Origin: Sphingomonas sp. AP4-R1
Lineage (GTDB): Bacteria; Pseudomonadota; Alphaproteobacteria; Sphingomonadales; Sphingomonadaceae
Direction of reading: 5' to 3'
Assembly (NCBI RefSeq): GCF_013113735.1
Contig: NZ_CP053346.1
Span: 806,001 to 870,000, forward strand
DNA length: 64,000 nt
Within the stretch, counting starts at the first letter, position 1. Each line of letters opens with the position of its first letter. Positions 27,624 through 34,299 of the stretch are shown piece by piece. The translations under genes were made by a program, and so were the position numbers. Below the pieces are notes generated by a model, which did no database searches, was not told the origin of the DNA, and saw only the letters and a program-made list of their open reading frames with translations.

Positions 27624-28109
27624 TCACAGCATTCCGAGTTCGAGCTTGGCCTCGTCGGACATCTTCTGCGGATCCCACGGCGGATCCCAGACGAGGTTCA
27701 CCTCGGCCGATCCGACCCCCGGCACCGCGCCGACGCGCAATTCCACCTCGCCCGGCATCGATTCCGCCACCGGGCAATGCGGCGTCGTCAGCGTCATCGT
27801 CACCACGGCATGCGCGTCCGCGATCTCGACACCATAGATCAGGCCGAGATCGTAGATGTTCACCGGAATCTCGGGATCGAAGATTTCCTTCAACGCCTCG
27901 ATCACGCCTTCGTATAGCGCGCCGCCCGGCTCGCCGCCCGACAGCGGCACCGGCTTTTCCGCGAGGAAACCGCTCAGATAATCGCGCGGGCGCTCCGCCC
28001 CAGTCTCCGCCGGCGTATCCGCCTCGGCCGCATCGTCGACGCGCGCCTTGGGCGGCGGCGCCACCGAGGCGACCTCCTCGATCTGGAAGGGGGTGTTGTC
28101 GTCGCTCAT
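27624..28109 (-). CDS. sufT: SufT, DUF59/MIP18-type Fe-S assembly factor
   Basis: This 161-residue protein has a variable acidic N-terminus (about 1-65) and a DUF59 domain with the family motif DPEIPVNIYDLGLIY and TTPHCPVAESMPGEV (conserved cysteine). SufT-type proteins help Fe-S maturation under high demand. The start overlaps the sufS stop by 4 bases, so it is co-translated with the cysteine desulfurase. Confidence 0.92.
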   Translation of the reverse strand: MSDDNTPFQIEEVASVAPPPKARVDDAAEADTPAETGAERPRDYLSGFLAEKPVPLSGGEPGGALYEGVIEALKEIFDPEIPVNIYDLGLIYGVEIADAHAVVTMTLTTPHCPVAESMPGEVELRVGAVPGVGSAEVNLVWDPPWDPQKMSDEAKLELGML

Positions 28110-29413
28110 CCGAAAATCCGCCTTACCCGTTCGATACCCTTCACCAGCGCCGCCACGTCGGCCGGGCCGTTATAGACGCCGAAGCTGGCCCGTGCCGTCG
28201 CCGGCACGCCCAGCGTCTCCATCAGCGGCTGCGCGCAATGGTGCCCCGCGCGGATCGCCACCTGCCCTTCGTCGAGGATGGTGCCGATATCGTGGGGATG
28301 AACCCCCTCGATCGCGAAGCTGACGATGCCGGCCGAATCCTCCGGCCCAAAGAGCGTGACGCTGTTGATGTCCGCCAGCGCCGCGCGCGTCGCCGTCACC
28401 AAAGCCGTCTCGTGCGCGTGGATCGCATCCAGCCCGATGCCGTCGACATAATCGATCGCCGCATGCAGCCCTAGCGCGCCGACGATATGCGGCGTGCCTG
28501 CCTCGAACCGCGTCGGCGGCGGCGCGAACGTCGTCTTGGCGAAGGTGACGCGATCGATCATCGATCCGCCGCCCTGATAAGGCGGCATCGCCTCCAGCAG
28601 TTCCGGCCGCGCCCACAGCACGCCGATGCCGGTGGGGCCATAGAGCTTGTGCCCGGAGAAGACGTAGAAATCGCAGCCGAGCGTACGGACATCAACCGCC
28701 AGCCGCGCCACCGCCTGGCACCCGTCGACCAGCAGTTTCGCGCCGACCTTGTGCGCCAGATCGGCGGCCCGCTTCACATCGAGCACCGAGCCCAGCACGT
28801 TCGAGACATGCGCCAGCGCGACGAGCTTGTGCTGCGGCGTCAGCATCGCCTCGACCGCGTCGAGATCGATCCTGTGATCGGCCGTCAGCGGCGCGACATC
28901 GATCGCCACGCCCGTCCGCTCGGCCATCAGCTGCCACGGCACGATATTGGAATGATGCTCCAGCTGGCTCAGCAGGATGCGATCGCCGGCCTTCAGCTGC
29001 GTGCCGGCCCAGCATGTCGCGACCAGATTGATCGCTTCAGTCGCACCGCGCACATAGACGATCTCGGCCGCAGAGCCCGCGCCGACGAACTTGGCCACCC
29101 GCTCGCGTGCCGCCTCATAAGCGAGCGTCATGTCCGCCGAGCGCTGATAGACGCCCCGATGCACGGTCGCGTAGGTTTCGCCATAGGCCCGCGCGATCGC
29201 GTCGATCACGGGGCGGGGCTTCTGCGCCGTTGCCGCCGTATCGAGATAAGCCCAGCCCGCCGGGATCGCCGGAAAATCGGCGAGGACGTCGAGCGGAGCC
29301 GCCCCTGTTCCACCGTTCGTCCTGAGCCTGTCGAAGGACGTGTTCCGGGCGATATCCCCTGCAGCCCGTGCTTCGACTTCGCTCAGCACGAACGGATCCG
29401 TGGGGGCACTCAC
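28106..29413 (-). CDS. sufS: SufS cysteine desulfurase with repeat-encoded N-terminus
   Basis: This PLP enzyme removes sulfur from cysteine for Fe-S assembly. The PLP lysine is in FSGHKLYGPTG, and the persulfide cysteine is in RAGHHCAQPLM. I start at the GTG overlapping the sufD stop (GTGA). Counting from there the protein has 435 residues, about 25 more than usual. The excess comes from residues of about 7-34, which are the in-frame translation of an 83-bp palindromic repeat (29313-29395); normal family sequence resumes at about DFPAIPAGWAYLDTAATAQ. If a later start were used the repeat would be leader, but none is obvious. Confidence 0.93.
   Translation of the reverse strand: MSAPTDPFVLSEVEARAAGDIARNTSFDRLRTNGGTGAAPLDVLADFPAIPAGWAYLDTAATAQKPRPVIDAIARAYGETYATVHRGVYQRSADMTLAYEAARERVAKFVGAGSAAEIVYVRGATEAINLVATCWAGTQLKAGDRILLSQLEHHSNIVPWQLMAERTGVAIDVAPLTADHRIDLDAVEAMLTPQHKLVALAHVSNVLGSVLDVKRAADLAHKVGAKLLVDGCQAVARLAVDVRTLGCDFYVFSGHKLYGPTGIGVLWARPELLEAMPPYQGGGSMIDRVTFAKTTFAPPPTRFEAGTPHIVGALGLHAAIDYVDGIGLDAIHAHETALVTATRAALADINSVTLFGPEDSAGIVSFAIEGVHPHDIGTILDEGQVAIRAGHHCAQPLMETLGVPATARASFGVYNGPADVAALVKGIERVRRIFG
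29313..29395. repeat. Palindromic repeat, family A (83 bp), inside sufS
   Basis: The ends are CCGTTCGTCCTGAGCCTGTC and, inverted, GCTTCGACTTCGCTCAGCAC plus GAACGG. It is read in frame as part of the SufS N-terminus. Length is identical to the copies at 33215 and 59362. Confidence 0.85.
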
Positions 29414-30144
29414 AGCATCGTCTCCAGCGCCTTGTCGATCGCCGCGTCGAAACGCTCCGCCTCGGGCGTGCCCTCGAACAGGCCGCCCACGAACGCGCGC
29501 AGCAGCAACGTCTTCGCCTCGGCCGGCGGCAGGCCGCGCGCGGCCAGATAGAAGAGCGCCTCGCGATCCAGCTCGCCGACGGTGGCGCCATGCGCGCACT
29601 TCACGTCGTCCGCGAAGATTTCCAGCTCGGGCTTCAGGTTCGCGGTCGCGGTGCGATCCAGCAGCATCGCCTTGGCGGACTGGGTCGCATCCGTCTTCTG
29701 CGCGCCGCGCGCGACGGCGACCTTGCCGAGATAGGAGCCCACAGCCTTGCCGCCCAGCACCGCGCGCACCGTCTGCGCGCTGGTGGCATTGGGCTCGGCA
29801 TGGGTGACGCGGGTGACGATCTCGTGCGTCTCGGCGCCACCGCCGACGATCGCGCCGGTCAGTTCCAGATGCGCACCCTCGGCCAGGGTCGCCTTCACGA
29901 ACACGCGGCCCAGCCGCCCGCCCGCAATCGCGATATGCACCGTCGCGGTCGCGCCCGCGCCGATCGCGATCTCATGGTCCTCGATCGTGACAGCGCCCTC
30001 GCCCGCATCGATCAGGATCGGCAGCGCGAACGCCTCGCCCGGCGCCACGACATGGGCGTGCGTCGCGACCGGCCACACGGTCGCGACCGCCTCCAGATCG
30101 CTGTAGCGCCATGTCTCGTCGCGCTTGGTGGGGAGCGTGGTCAC
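29410..30144 (-). CDS. sufD: SufD, Fe-S scaffold complex subunit
   Basis: This 244-residue protein belongs to the SufBCD scaffold. It is shorter than E. coli SufD (about 420), as is common in alphaproteobacteria, and keeps the beta-helix core. The C-terminal part has KCAHGATVGELDREALFYLAARGLPP-like sequence, with the conserved Cys-x-His-Gly segment (KCAHGATVG). It overlaps sufC by 4 bases and sufS by 3, so the three are translationally coupled. Confidence 0.92.
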   Translation of the reverse strand: MTTLPTKRDETWRYSDLEAVATVWPVATHAHVVAPGEAFALPILIDAGEGAVTIEDHEIAIGAGATATVHIAIAGGRLGRVFVKATLAEGAHLELTGAIVGGGAETHEIVTRVTHAEPNATSAQTVRAVLGGKAVGSYLGKVAVARGAQKTDATQSAKAMLLDRTATANLKPELEIFADDVKCAHGATVGELDREALFYLAARGLPPAEAKTLLLRAFVGGLFEGTPEAERFDAAIDKALETML

Positions 30145-30884
30145 GCCGCGATGTCCTTATAGCCCTCGCGCTCCAGCTCCAGCGCAAGCTCCGGGCCGCC
30201 CGAGCGGACGATGCGCCCGCCGGCCAGCACATGGACGAAATCCGGCCGCACATAATCCAGCAGCCGCTGATAATGGGTGATTAGCAGCACGGCCTTGTCG
30301 GGGCGGCGCATGATCCGGTTGATGCCGTCGCCCACCGCCTTCAGCGCATCGATGTCGAGGCCCGAATCCGTCTCGTCGAGGATGGCGAGCTTGGGATCGA
30401 TGATCCCCATCTGCACCATCTCGGCGCGCTTCTTCTCGCCCCCCGAAAAGCCGACATTGACGGGGCGCTTCAGCATCTCGGGATCGAGCCCGATCTCGCT
30501 CGCCTGCGCGCGCGCCACCTTCAGGAATTCGCCACCCGAAAGCGGCGCCTCGCCCCGACCCTTGCGCTGCGCATTCAGCGCCTCGCGCAGGAACTGGAGG
30601 TTGGACACGCCCGGAATCTCGACCGGATATTGGAAGCCCAAAAACAGTCCGGCGGCGGCACGCTCATGCGGCGCAAGCTCCAGCAGATCGACGCCGTCGA
30701 ACGTGGCCGAGCCTTCCGTCACCTCATAGCCCGGCCGCCCCGACAGGACATAACCGAGCGTGGACTTGCCCGCCCCGTTCGGCCCCATGATCGCATGCAC
30801 CTCGCCCGCATTCAGCGAGAGCGAGAGGCCCTTGAGGATCTGTTTGCCGTCGATTTCGGCGTGGAGGTTTTCAATTTTGAGCAT
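30141..30884 (-). CDS. sufC: SufC ATPase of the Fe-S scaffold complex
   Basis: This 247-residue cytoplasmic ABC-type ATPase has Walker A GPNGAGKST (residues 34-42), the signature FSGGEKKRAEM, and a Walker B with LAILDETDSGLD. Unlike transporters it acts on SufB/SufD to open the scaffold. Length is typical. Its start overlaps the end of the small upstream gene by 14 bases. Confidence 0.96.
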   Translation of the reverse strand: MLKIENLHAEIDGKQILKGLSLSLNAGEVHAIMGPNGAGKSTLGYVLSGRPGYEVTEGSATFDGVDLLELAPHERAAAGLFLGFQYPVEIPGVSNLQFLREALNAQRKGRGEAPLSGGEFLKVARAQASEIGLDPEMLKRPVNVGFSGGEKKRAEMVQMGIIDPKLAILDETDSGLDIDALKAVGDGINRIMRRPDKAVLLITHYQRLLDYVRPDFVHVLAGGRIVRSGGPELALELEREGYKDIAA

Positions 30885-31236
30885 TTTTATTCCGATTCCG
30901 ACGCGCGTTAATTACCTCAGCCGCCACGTCTTCCGACAAATCTCGATCCATGCCGACCAGCCGCGCATGAGGATCGTAGGTATAGTAAGGCGACTTTGGA
31001 TTATCTGCATCTGCAGCCGAATGCGCGGCAGATCCCGCTATACTCAGTTCTAAGATCAATCGATCGCTGCGGCATTCAGAGCGCGCAGCAAGCTCGATCG
31101 ACGCAACAGCCTCTCCCGTCAAAGCATTCTCTCTGGCAAAAGAGATCACGCATTCCCGAAAGGGGGCAAACGCAGTTTGGTCTTTTTCCCAAGGCCCGGG
31201 AACCTCCGCCTGGAGAGCCAGAAGAGCGAAAAACAT
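30871..31236 (-). CDS. Small protein of unknown function inside the suf operon
   Basis: I do not recognise a family. The 121-residue product starts with a short hydrophobic stretch (MFFALLALQA), which could be a weak signal peptide, and contains two cysteines (FRECVIS, RSECRSD). It ends in an Asn/Arg/Lys-rich tail. The ATG overlaps the DUF559 stop by one base (TGATG) and the gene overlaps sufC by 14 bases, so it is part of the operon and probably translated. Confidence 0.65.
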   Translation of the reverse strand: MFFALLALQAEVPGPWEKDQTAFAPFRECVISFARENALTGEAVASIELAARSECRSDRLILELSIAGSAAHSAADADNPKSPYYTYDPHARLVGMDRDLSEDVAAEVINARRNRNKNAQN

Positions 31237-31723
31237 CACCCCAAGCCCCCCTCAAAGCTCACCCCCGAAAGCCCCTCCCCTTCAGGGGAGGGGTTGGGGT
31301 GGGGCCGCGCGGCAAGCGCCACGCCGACATGGGCCAGCACGCCCTCCATATTCCGCATCACCTCGTCATTGGTGACCCGAACCACGCGATAGCCAGCCTC
31401 TCCGAGTGCGGCATCGCGCCGCGCATCAGCCGCCGGATCGACATGGGTGTCGCCATCCACCTCGACGATCAGGCGCGCAGCGGGGCAGACGAAATCGGCA
31501 ATGTAGCTGCCGATCGTGGCCTGCCGACGGAATTTCCATCCGCCGAGCTGGCCATTGCTGAGGTGGCGCCACAAACGCTTCTCGGGTTCGGTGGGATTGC
31601 GGCGCATCTCAGCGGCGCGCTCCTGCAAGTCAGCGATGCGCCCAGCCGAGAGGCCCCACCCCCGGCCCCTCCCCTGAAGGGGAGGGGTGTTGAGGCGTTT
31701 CGCATCGTCGCGCTCGGTCAGCA

Positions 31724-31724
<1 letters not shown>
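31236..31724 (-). CDS. DUF559 (Vsr-like) endonuclease-domain protein bracketed by repeats
   Basis: The 162-residue protein has a DUF559 core (about 36-125: RRNPTEPEKRLWRHLSNGQL, KFRRQATIGSYIADFVC, LIVEVDGDTH, GYRVVRVTNDEV). This has the PD-(D/E)XK/Vsr-like nuclease arrangement, with the acidic residues of DFVC and EVDGDTH. Residues of about 10-28 (NTPPLQGRGRGWGLS) and the C-terminus (about 139-158, HPNPSPEGEGL) are translations of two inverted copies of one palindromic repeat. The start shares one base with the sufB stop (TGATG). A restriction or DNA-repair role is not supported by context. Confidence 0.85.
31268..31308. repeat. Palindromic repeat, family E, left copy around DUF559
   Basis: A perfect hairpin CCCCTCCCC-TTCA-GGGGAGGGG (31272-31293) is followed by TTGGGGTGGGGCCG pointing into the gene. 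It encodes the C-terminus of the DUF559 protein. Confidence 0.85.
31652..31690. repeat. Palindromic repeat, family E, right copy around DUF559
   Basis: The inner arm GGCCCCACCCCCGG is followed by the hairpin CCCCTCCCC-TGAA-GGGGAGGGG (31666-31687). It is the inverted counterpart of the copy at 31268 and encodes the N-terminus of the DUF559 protein. In both copies the hairpin is outermost and the G/C-rich arm faces the gene. Confidence 0.85.
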
Positions 31725-33195
<1,471 letters not shown>

Positions 33196-33196
<1 letters not shown>

Positions 33197-33705
33197 TATG
33201 CGGTGACCTCCACGCCGTTCGTGCTGAGCGAAGTCGAAGCACGGGCTTCAAGCGATTCCCCCTCAGCACGTCCTTCGACTTCGCTCAGGACGAGCGGAGA
33301 GGAATGGGCACTACCCAACTTTGCCAAACTCACCTCACCTAAAGCCTTCCGCATCGCTTCATTCACAACTTCCCAGTGCGGCTTCACCTGACAATGGCGA
33401 TCCAGCCCGCAATCCTGCTTGCCCTGCTCGACGCAGGCGGTCATCGCGATCGGGCCTTCCACCGCCTCGACGATATCGGCCAGGCTGATCGCCTCGGCCG
33501 GCCGCGCGAGGCGGAAGCCGCCGCCCGTGCCGCGCGAGGACACCAGCAGACCGGCCGCCGAGAGCTTGCCGACCAGTTTCTGCGCGGTCGGCAGCGGCAC
33601 GCCCGTCTCGTCCGACAGCAAAGTCGCGGTCAGCCGTGCCTCGCCGTGGCGCACGGCGGCGGCGAGCATCACGACCGCATAATCGGCAAGGTTGGAAAGG
33701 CGCAT
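33196..33705 (-). CDS. Rrf2-family Fe-S-responsive regulator (SufR/IscR-like)
   Basis: The start is the ATG giving [14 protein letters not shown], the family N-terminus. The 169-residue protein has a winged-helix domain (about 1-80, with recognition region [18 protein letters not shown]) and three cysteines in CVEQGKQDC and CGLDRHC, likely Fe-S ligands. The family end should be near residue 140; the last 28 residues or so (LVLSEVEGR to ASTSLSTNG) are translated from an 83-bp palindromic repeat. It probably represses the suf operon through the palindrome at 33710-33736, next to its own start. Confidence 0.9.
33215..33297. repeat. Palindromic repeat, family A (83 bp), in the rrf2 3' end
   Basis: The ends are CCGTTCGTGCTGAGCGAAGT and, inverted, TCCTTCGACTTCGCTCAGGA plus CGAGCGG. 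It is read in frame as the C-terminal tail of the Rrf2 regulator, just before sufB. Confidence 0.85.
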
Positions 33706-33709
33706 GAGT

Positions 33710-33736
33710 CCAATCGGAGTGATTCGTTCCGATTGG
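33710..33736 (-). promoter_or_regulatory. Perfect 9+9 bp palindrome, likely Rrf2 operator
   Basis: CCAATCGGA and TCCGATTGG are separated by 9 bases, giving a perfect 27-bp inverted repeat that ends 5 bases before the rrf2 ATG. It overlaps the predicted transcription start of the promoter at 33738-33765. The position suits autorepression by the Rrf2 regulator. Confidence 0.8.
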
Positions 33737-33737
33737 G

Positions 33738-33765
33738 CAGATAGGCGCACGCGCCGCAGGGTCAA
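33738..33765 (-). promoter_or_regulatory. Promoter of the suf operon
   Basis: On the minus strand TTGACC (33765-33760) and TATCTG (33743-33738) are separated by 16 bases. Predicted initiation falls inside the palindrome at 33710-33736, consistent with repression by steric block. Confidence 0.7.
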
Positions 33766-34182: not shown

Positions 34183-34299
34183 CCTCCCCTCCCGCGTGCG
34201 GGAGGGGTTGGGGGTGGGCCTTTCCTCGATTAGACGGCGTCGATCCGCAGCCGACGTCGCTGCCCACCCCCCGACCCCTCCCGCAAGCGGAGGGGGGAG
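34183..34299. repeat. Paired inverted palindromic repeats, family E
   Basis: Copy one is a perfect hairpin CCCCTCCCGC-GT-GCGGGAGGGG (34186-34207) followed by TTGGGGGTGGGC. Copy two, inverted, is GCCCACCCCCCGA followed by CCCCTCCCGC-AA-GCGGAGGGG (34262-34295). The 42 bases between show no coding potential. The layout (hairpin outside, G-rich arm inside) is the same as around the DUF559 gene. The right end supplies GGGGAG, 6-7 bases before the pyrD ATG. Confidence 0.85.

What the first reader, a model, noticed from the sequence alone, without database searches (positions are those of the whole stretch)
31236..31724. DUF559 nuclease gene bracketed by inverted palindromic repeats: a candidate autonomous repeat element
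Seen directly: two inverted copies of one repeat (hairpin CCCCTCCCC/GGGGAGGGG plus a G-rich arm) encode both ends of a DUF559 (Vsr-like fold) protein, with the hairpin outermost on each side. A short element with the same architecture but only 42 bases between the arms lies at 34183-34299. By analogy with REP sequences and their RAYT transposases, the nuclease may mobilise or maintain the repeat family, and the short form may be its non-autonomous derivative. The gene is also threaded into the suf operon by TGATG junctions, as a neutral insertion would require. The mobility idea is inference.
Basis: partly seen in the sequence, partly recalled or inferred. Interest (0 to 1): 0.72.

Follow-up and report, generated by a model that had tools for sequence, protein, structure and literature searches.

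The report
Nuclease gene riding inside palindromic repeats
A small gene for a DNA-cutting enzyme sits between two mirrored copies of a hairpin-forming repeat, and many related genes in other bacteria sit between their own matching repeats, which suggests an unrecognised kind of small mobile DNA element that works like a known one but uses a different enzyme.

Summary
The DUF559 gene (31236-31727, minus) spans a 416-bp unit, 31272-31687, bounded by inverted copies of one hairpin. All eight DUF559 genes found in this genome have inverted hairpin ends. In this genome and 38 relatives, 67 of 90 scored loci have inverted flanks against 0 of 446 shifted windows; of 79 named loci of the window's lineage, 64 have both hairpins against 0 of 288. 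Among 91 hairpins in the first 2.06 Mb, five pairs lie 394-420 bp apart and all five enclose DUF559. Repeat type follows nuclease lineage, not host. Hairpin number follows intact DUF559 genes (rho 0.80), not RAYT-type transposases, absent from this genome. Occupied and empty sites exist. Outside sphingomonads 20 of 45 loci are flanked. Corrections: the short element at 34183 belongs to another subfamily, and mobility by the nuclease remains inference. Best reading: a REPIN-like element whose partner is a Vsr/homing-endonuclease-fold nuclease. No title or abstract listed by nine literature searches links DUF559 with such repeats.

The parts
31272..31687 (-). the 416-bp element: hairpin - arm - DUF559 core - arm - hairpin (subfamily A1c, loop CTTCAG read inward)
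   Evidence: inverted flank score 29; same unit at the sufB-sufC junction of other species
31272..31293 (+). terminal hairpin CCCCTCCCCTTCAGGGGAGGGG, with inner G-rich arm to 31304
31666..31687 (-). inverted terminal hairpin, with inner arm 31655-31665
31236..31727 (-). DUF559 (PF04480) Vsr-like nuclease gene, 163 aa; motif D-E-D-H intact (D45, E56, D58, H62 of the domain piece)
34186..34296 (.). short REPIN-like element, hairpins 34186-34207 and 34275-34296; subfamily A1b (GC..GC loop), that of the DUF559 gene L001 elsewhere in the genome
55816..55834 (+). single hairpin of the same general type
31724..33196 (-). sufB, host gene upstream; its stop codon overlaps the DUF559 start
   Evidence: annotated as sufB in the same position in S. 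parapaucimobilis
30871..31239 (-). 122-aa ORF of unknown function between the element and sufC; no Pfam match
30141..30884 (-). sufC, downstream host gene
   Evidence: annotated in S. parapaucimobilis

Best explanation
The DUF559 gene and its terminal palindromes form one selfish unit with a division of labour like that of RAYT and REPIN: long units (416-482 bp in this genome) encode the nuclease; short units (92-148 bp among 21 read in this genome) keep only the two inverted ends and depend on it. Shown: the pairing, its subfamily specificity, the copy-number correlation, the link with an intact catalytic motif, and occupied/empty sites. Inferred: the nuclease recognises the hairpin ends of its own subfamily, nicks there (Vsr/EDxHD-fold hydrolysis, probably on DNA extruded or single-stranded at replication forks), and host repair then copies the hairpin-bounded segment into new intergenic sites. 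Where a copy has lost its ends and its motif, as in the suf operons of one sphingomonad clade, it has stopped being an element and is inherited as an ordinary (perhaps domesticated) gene.
For: Flanks: 67/90 loci vs 0/446 shifted windows; Pseudomonadota-wide 13/30 vs 1/120 and 13/21 vs 0/84; named loci 64/79 both hairpins vs 0/288. Scan independent of DUF559: 5 of 5 hairpin pairs at 350-450 bp enclose DUF559. Tree: all seven repeat labels need 20 changes against a shuffled mean of 52.8, 0 of 200 as low; the four main types need 8 against a shuffled mean of 30.5, lowest 26 of 100 shuffles; genome of origin needs 75 against 76.9, so it is not clustered. Subfamily C hairpin: 21, 7 and 28 copies in exactly the three genomes with nuclease subclade C, 1 and 2 in two others, 0 in 54 (p 3e-5 for 3 or more copies). 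Hairpins vs intact DUF559 rho 0.80; Y1_Tnp presence p 0.30. Intact motif 65/75 flanked vs 2/15 with a changed motif. L002-L004 of one genome are 441 bp each, 82-86% identical, with mostly unrelated flanks. Empty sites. Fold: after a gonococcal relative (3hrl) the best solved match is the homing endonuclease I-Bth0305I; Vsr is eighth.
Against: No target-site duplication or excision product was found, so no transposition step is shown. In the wider samples 25 of 51 loci lack inverted flanks, and one of 120 shifted windows scored 34.5. Four Azospirillum, one E. coli, one N. gonorrhoeae and one Lelliottia copy have none. 10 of 75 loci with an intact motif are unflanked. G017 has 187 hairpins with only two DUF559 genes, both with one motif residue changed; G033 has 12 A1c hairpins without an A1c nuclease found. 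The reversed control pattern also correlates with DUF559 number, rho 0.50. Spacers of short elements are mostly unlike each other (by eye). A hydrolytic nuclease alone is not known to join strands (recalled).
Confidence: 0.66

Rival explanations
1. Homing: the nuclease cuts the empty allele (intergenic site) of a related cell, and flanking homology copies the whole unit in, as with free-standing homing endonucleases. The hairpins are accessory (expression, protection) or acquired.
For: Closest solved fold of known biology is a homing endonuclease (3r3p, E 5.6e-5); lone nuclease; occupied and empty alleles at the same intergenic site across a genus.
Against: Does not explain the many short nuclease-free units (26 close pairs in 2.06 Mb), nor the subfamily match of ends and nuclease.
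Confidence: 0.14
2. Passenger: another, unidentified enzyme moves the palindromic repeats, and DUF559 is cargo.
For: No DNA-joining activity is known to me for DUF559; a transposase of a class not sought here could exist (only Y1_Tnp was searched).
Against: DUF559 is the only cargo in 5 of 5 long pairs; own genome has no Y1_Tnp match; repeat type follows nuclease lineage; 13 of 23 unflanked copies have a changed motif against 2 of 67 flanked ones.
Confidence: 0.12
3. Regulation or insulation: hairpins act as terminators, mRNA stabilisers or attenuators that make a toxic nuclease tolerable; mobility is incidental.
For: Hairpins lie at both gene ends and are partly translated; a Caulobacter DUF559 protein is needed for an SOS response in a mutant (PMC12907096, section 12 read).
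Against: Nuclease-free pairs outnumber the genes (26 to 5 in the scanned part); both ends are inverted copies of one subfamily; single terminators would do.
Confidence: 0.05
4. Maintenance: the nuclease is a host or selfish repair enzyme that processes extruded palindromes, so that repeats and nuclease depend on each other without moving.
For: The copy-number correlation would also follow.
Against: Does not explain why the nuclease gene itself lies between the ends at unrelated sites.
Confidence: 0.05

Closest known systems
REPIN / RAYT (TnpA-REP) systems
   Same: Short palindromic repeats in inverted pairs; an enzyme gene near inverted copies; several repeat groups in one genome, each with its own enzyme (abstract of PMC3116915)
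   Different: Enzyme is a PD-(D/E)XK, Vsr-fold nuclease, not a Y1 HUH transposase; no GTAG/CGTC tag seen; own genome has no Y1_Tnp match
EDxHD / Vsr-fold homing endonucleases (I-Bth0305I; family name recalled)
   Same: Predicted fold (3r3p, E 5.6e-5); lone nuclease gene; occupied and empty alleles
   Different: Carries hairpin ends and has nuclease-free derivatives; no intron was sought
Vsr mismatch endonuclease and Caulobacter VsrA (DUF559)
   Same: Similar fold (1vsr, E 0.011); VsrA is a DUF559 protein with a genetic DNA-damage effect (PMC12907096, section 12)
   Different: Scores 13.9 bits on the Vsr model against a cut-off of 97.85; the main text of that paper holds none of the terms palindrom, inverted repeat or REP element
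MITEs with their autonomous transposons
   Same: Long coding and short non-coding units share ends
   Different: The long units hold only DUF559, no transposase match; no target-site duplication found

Membership tests
DUF559 (PF04480) | HMM score over the curated cut-off | tested here: met
   118.5 bits vs 20.6
REPIN/RAYT | dispersed palindromic repeats in inverted pairs | tested here: met
   26 neighbour distances under 150 bp among 91 hairpins; all 21 short elements read are inverted pairs
REPIN/RAYT | Y1 HUH transposase (PF01797) associated with the repeats | tested here: not met
   0 matches in own genome; the flanked gene is DUF559
REPIN/RAYT | GTAG or CGTC tag at the palindrome (tags named in the title of PMC3733652) | tested here: not met
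   Read by eye on the ends listed; most ends read CT|CCCC or AT|CCTCC, no conserved tag
Vsr mismatch endonuclease | TIGR00632 over its cut-off | tested here: not met
   13.9 vs 97.85 bits
Homing endonuclease | occupied and empty alleles of one site | tested here: met
   sites e1 and e2
Homing endonuclease | cleaves the empty allele | not testable with these tools
   needs protein
Classical IS/MITE | target-site duplication | tested here: inconclusive
   none seen at non-suf sites of the named set (direct-repeat score at most 13); boundaries known only to a few bases
Anti-phage defence genes (PADLOC) | model match | tested here: not met
   only a 9.5-bit partial match, E 0.044, for one of two proteins

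The most novel reading that the evidence does not exclude
A new class of bacterial mobile element driven by a lone Vsr/EDxHD-fold hydrolytic nuclease that reads its own hairpin ends, moves both itself and short nuclease-free derivatives, and accounts for many of the GGGAGGGG/GGGAGAGG-type palindromic repeats of Alphaproteobacteria and beyond.
Probability: 0.4. Interest if true: 0.92.

Novelty: new variant of a known kind. Interest (0 to 1): 0.82.

Why it matters
Of the 59 genomes compared, 28 have an intact DUF559 gene and no Y1_Tnp (RAYT-type) match, with a median of 53.5 hairpins of these types, so the known REP-moving enzyme cannot explain their repeats. Here a different enzyme family, so far named 'domain of unknown function', is tied to the repeats by position, sequence subfamily, genome-wide number and integrity of its motif. 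That gives a candidate function to DUF559, found in 161 of 397 Pseudomonadota genomes, a candidate origin for a large class of orphan palindromic repeats, and a natural contrast (motif kept and flanked versus motif lost and unflanked) that makes the question testable.

Tried and rejected
RAYT as the mover: rejected for this genome (no Y1_Tnp match), and across 59 genomes Y1_Tnp presence does not predict hairpin number (p 0.30). A recent insertion at sufB-sufC: rejected; 42 of 79 named loci of this lineage have sufB upstream in the same locus, though five same-genus relatives lack the gene there (the sixth, G006, has no readable junction). The junction is a variable site: seven of ten printed relatives and the window show different fillers. 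A general target duplication: looked for and not found, except a duplicated sufB 3' end in 14 of the 42 suf loci (35 of the 42 could be scored); in the window itself it is not detectable as DNA (score 6, reached by 437 of 500 shuffles). Rfam: five weak matches, none over its gathering score. My first check of the S. parapaucimobilis locus reported no flanks because the match covered the hairpins; one search corrected it. Direct-orientation flank alignment also scored 18 or more in 34 of 90, as palindromes align both ways, so the shifted windows are the main control. Left and right flanks of different loci reached 18 in 25 of 200 pairs of one genome and 75 of 795 of different genomes (strands not matched). 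Ends were sorted into types by my own regular expressions; 27 of 89 tree rows carry the label 'none', some of them with hairpins that the expressions missed.

Full report
What is there. The window's DUF559 gene (31236-31727, minus strand) overlaps the sufB stop codon and is followed by a 122-aa ORF and sufC. Its ends are read through two inverted copies of one repeat: hairpin CCCCTCCCCTTCAGGGGAGGGG outermost, then a G-rich arm. Pfam DUF559 scores 118.5 bits.

The same genome. G000 (5.27 Mb) has eight DUF559 matches. All eight have inverted flank scores of 20 or more, and within each gene the two ends share the subfamily (one end of L008 is degenerate). By eye there are five subfamilies: A1a (loop TGGAA or TGAAA; L002-L004), A1b (GCTTGC; L001), A1c (CTTCAG; the window's gene, L005), B (CCTCCCCAT and a second hairpin; L006, L007), C (CGCCAG, then TGGC; L008). 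The hairpin pattern occurs 167 times against 2 for its reversed control. That call lists only the first places, up to 2.06 Mb; after merging nested matches I took 91 hairpins from it. Of their neighbour distances, 26 are under 150 bp, none 150-350, five 394-420, and those five are the five DUF559 genes of that stretch; two distances of 1239 and 1453 bp join hairpins of unlike type. I read 21 short elements in 20 fetched stretches: each subfamily occurs among them, one element being mixed B/C and one only B-like. Loop and arm base go together: loop T..A with arm TGGGT in 12 of 12 ends, GC..GC with TGGGC in 9 of 10 (read). The short element in the window has the GC..GC loop and TGGGC at both ends, so it goes with L001 and not with the gene of the finding.

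Relatives. One search found DUF559 in 44 of 59 genomes (own included). I fetched 92 loci from 41 genomes, left out the 14 rows under 50 bits, and could score 90 from 39 genomes (L030 and L034 lack a flank). Inverted flank score 18 or more: 67 of 90; shifted windows 0 of 446, maximum 14.5. A sample across Pseudomonadota: 161 of 397 genomes have a match. The 30 best loci, one per genome and all outside the family of G000, gave 13 flanked (controls 1 of 120, which scored 34.5). The loci of the next 19 genomes in rank plus two from G246 gave 13 of 21 (controls 0 of 84); four of those 19 genomes and G246 are of the same family, and outside it 7 of 15 are flanked, so 20 of 45 outside the family in all. 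These samples favour high-scoring members. Of 39 plasmid records with a match I fetched ten: a Sinorhizobium and a Deinococcus locus are flanked (in Sinorhizobium one hairpin lies 250 bp from the match), four Azospirillum, one E. coli, one N. gonorrhoeae and one Lelliottia locus are not, and S. parapaucimobilis is.

Named loci. Searching GTDB contigs with P0007, a close homologue, gave 110 confirmed places, of which 79 distinct loci were kept: Sphingomonas, Sphingopyxis, Sphingobium, Novosphingobium, Blastomonas, Erythrobacter and others. Both hairpins in 64, one in 12, none in 3; four are cut by contig ends. Shifted windows: both in 0, one in 17 of 288. Of the 120 listed best homologues in a protein database (2622 found), 116 carry the repeat-coded C-tail and 118 the N-tail; this set is biased, as the query has those tails.

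Covariation. A quick tree of 89 DUF559 domains (few columns; 45 of 85 inner branches under 80 support) needs 20 changes for all seven repeat labels against a shuffled mean of 52.8. The four main types (58 rows) need 8 against a shuffled mean of 30.5, lowest 26 in 100 shuffles; genome of origin (41 genomes) needs 75 against 76.9. So nuclease lineages carry their repeat type across genomes. The subfamily C hairpin has 21, 7 and 28 copies in G000, G003 and G004, the three genomes holding nuclease subclade C; 1 in G002, 2 in G033, 0 in 54. The A1c hairpin is in 7 of 8 genomes with that nuclease lineage and 8 of 51 without. These counts include the ends of the nuclease units themselves, and the patterns were taken from G000. 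Hairpin number (two patterns) against intact DUF559 number: rho 0.80; median 49.5 in 36 genomes with, 2 in 23 without. The reversed control pattern gives rho 0.50. Y1_Tnp presence has no detectable effect (p 0.30). Genomes are related, so these p-values are not for independent points.

Motif kept or lost. In the alignment the motif is D45, E56, D58, H62 of the window's domain piece; that these are the catalytic residues is inferred from the fold family. Flanked: 65 of 75 with the motif, 2 of 15 with a changed motif. Eleven of the fifteen form one clade of the tree (support 96), none of them flanked. Ten of the eleven lie behind sufB; the eleventh (G025) lies behind sufB and a flanked copy, by the coordinates. 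They group with the A1c lineage (support 89). Inference: an old A1c-like insertion at sufB-sufC decayed or was domesticated in one clade.

Occupied and empty sites. At the window's locus the five same-genus genomes with a readable sufB-sufC junction have no DUF559 match; G001 has a short hairpin pair there. In genus g51 (151 genomes) I followed two elements of G246. Element 1: of 14 comparable loci other than the query, 10 hold an insert of 439-529 bp that begins with a hairpin and contains DUF559, and four have 18-59 bp between the same flanks and no DUF559; one of the ten (L229) shows no right hairpin. Of four more loci, G537, with flanks 92-94% identical, has 31 bp where G246 has 432; the other three hold 139-439 bp of other sequence. 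Element 2: 12 loci besides the query are occupied, with DUF559. Of 14 more, two are short (17 and 71 bp), one holds a short hairpin pair of another type, and eleven hold other sequence (one read from one side only); none of these fetched stretches has a DUF559 match. Within G000, L002, L003 and L004 are each 441 bp, 82-86% identical, with mostly unrelated flanks. This fits movement of a unit with defined ends, or an ancestral unit lost in some species; the exact boundary and any duplication could not be fixed.

Structure. AlphaFold2 on 58 sequences: mean pLDDT 82.7, high in the domain and low in the repeat-coded tails. Foldseek against PDB: 3hrl, a gonococcal putative endonuclease (NGO0050, 40% identical, E 1.1e-7); 3r3p, homing endonuclease I-Bth0305I (5.6e-5 and 8.2e-5); then weaker matches, among them mitochondrial ribosome chains, PvuRts1I and, eighth, Vsr 1vsr (0.011).

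Literature. Nine library searches list no title or abstract that couples DUF559 with palindromic or inverted repeats. The lists were capped; those for DUF559 with REP (7 papers), palindromic (2), inverted repeat (0) and repeat (9) were complete, but of these I opened only PMC12907096. Most subscription papers and all preprints outside PMC are missing, so absence is not proof. PMC12907096 (section 12 read): a Caulobacter DUF559 protein, VsrA, is needed for the SOS response in cells lacking a cytosine methyltransferase. PMC3116915 (abstract and outline): REPINs and RAYTs. PMC3733652 (title, start of abstract, two passages): GTAG and CGTC tags. That transposases join strands while Vsr-type enzymes hydrolyse is recalled.

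Mechanism. Shown: unit, ends, subfamily match, genome-wide covariation, motif link, sites with and without the unit. Inferred: recognition and nicking of the ends, copying by host repair, dependence of short units on the nuclease. I put about two in three on the nuclease being the mover or maintainer, with the step from cut to copy open.

Noticed in passing
L256-L263, L266, L267, L270, L285, L293, L299: The 3' end of sufB is duplicated (up to about 57 bp) directly behind the DUF559 element in 14 of 42 suf loci (35 could be scored); some DUF559 proteins end with the SufB C-terminus. It could allow clean loss by recombination.
   Followed up: partly
sufB-sufC junction, window 30885-31723 and L094-L102: The junction is a hotspot filled with different, apparently unrelated small ORFs in different sphingomonads, several starting at a TGATG- or TAATG-type overlap with sufB (by eye).
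   Followed up: partly
L074, L080, L082, L083, L086-L092: A clade of DUF559 proteins behind sufB has lost the D-E-D-H motif yet is kept in eleven genomes; perhaps a domesticated non-cutting DNA-binding protein.
   Followed up: partly
window 33209-33303: A second, unrelated inverted repeat (39-nt arms, 85% complementary) codes for part of the C-terminus of ORF 33196-33765, which stands where S. parapaucimobilis has its SUF regulator; by eye a similar peptide lies in ORF 28106-29599.
   Followed up: no
L002 and L004 outer flanks: Two of three A1a elements sit, by eye, inside a further inverted sequence GCGGAC ... GTCCGC, as if inserted in another repeat.
   Followed up: no
G036, hairpins listed: A further hairpin subfamily (loop with GTTCT/AGAAC) with its own short pairs, in a genome whose one DUF559 locus is cut by a contig end.
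   Followed up: no
G013 sufB: sufB matches in several separate pieces, one with a stop inside; G013 is 86% complete, so sequencing error is likely.
   Followed up: no
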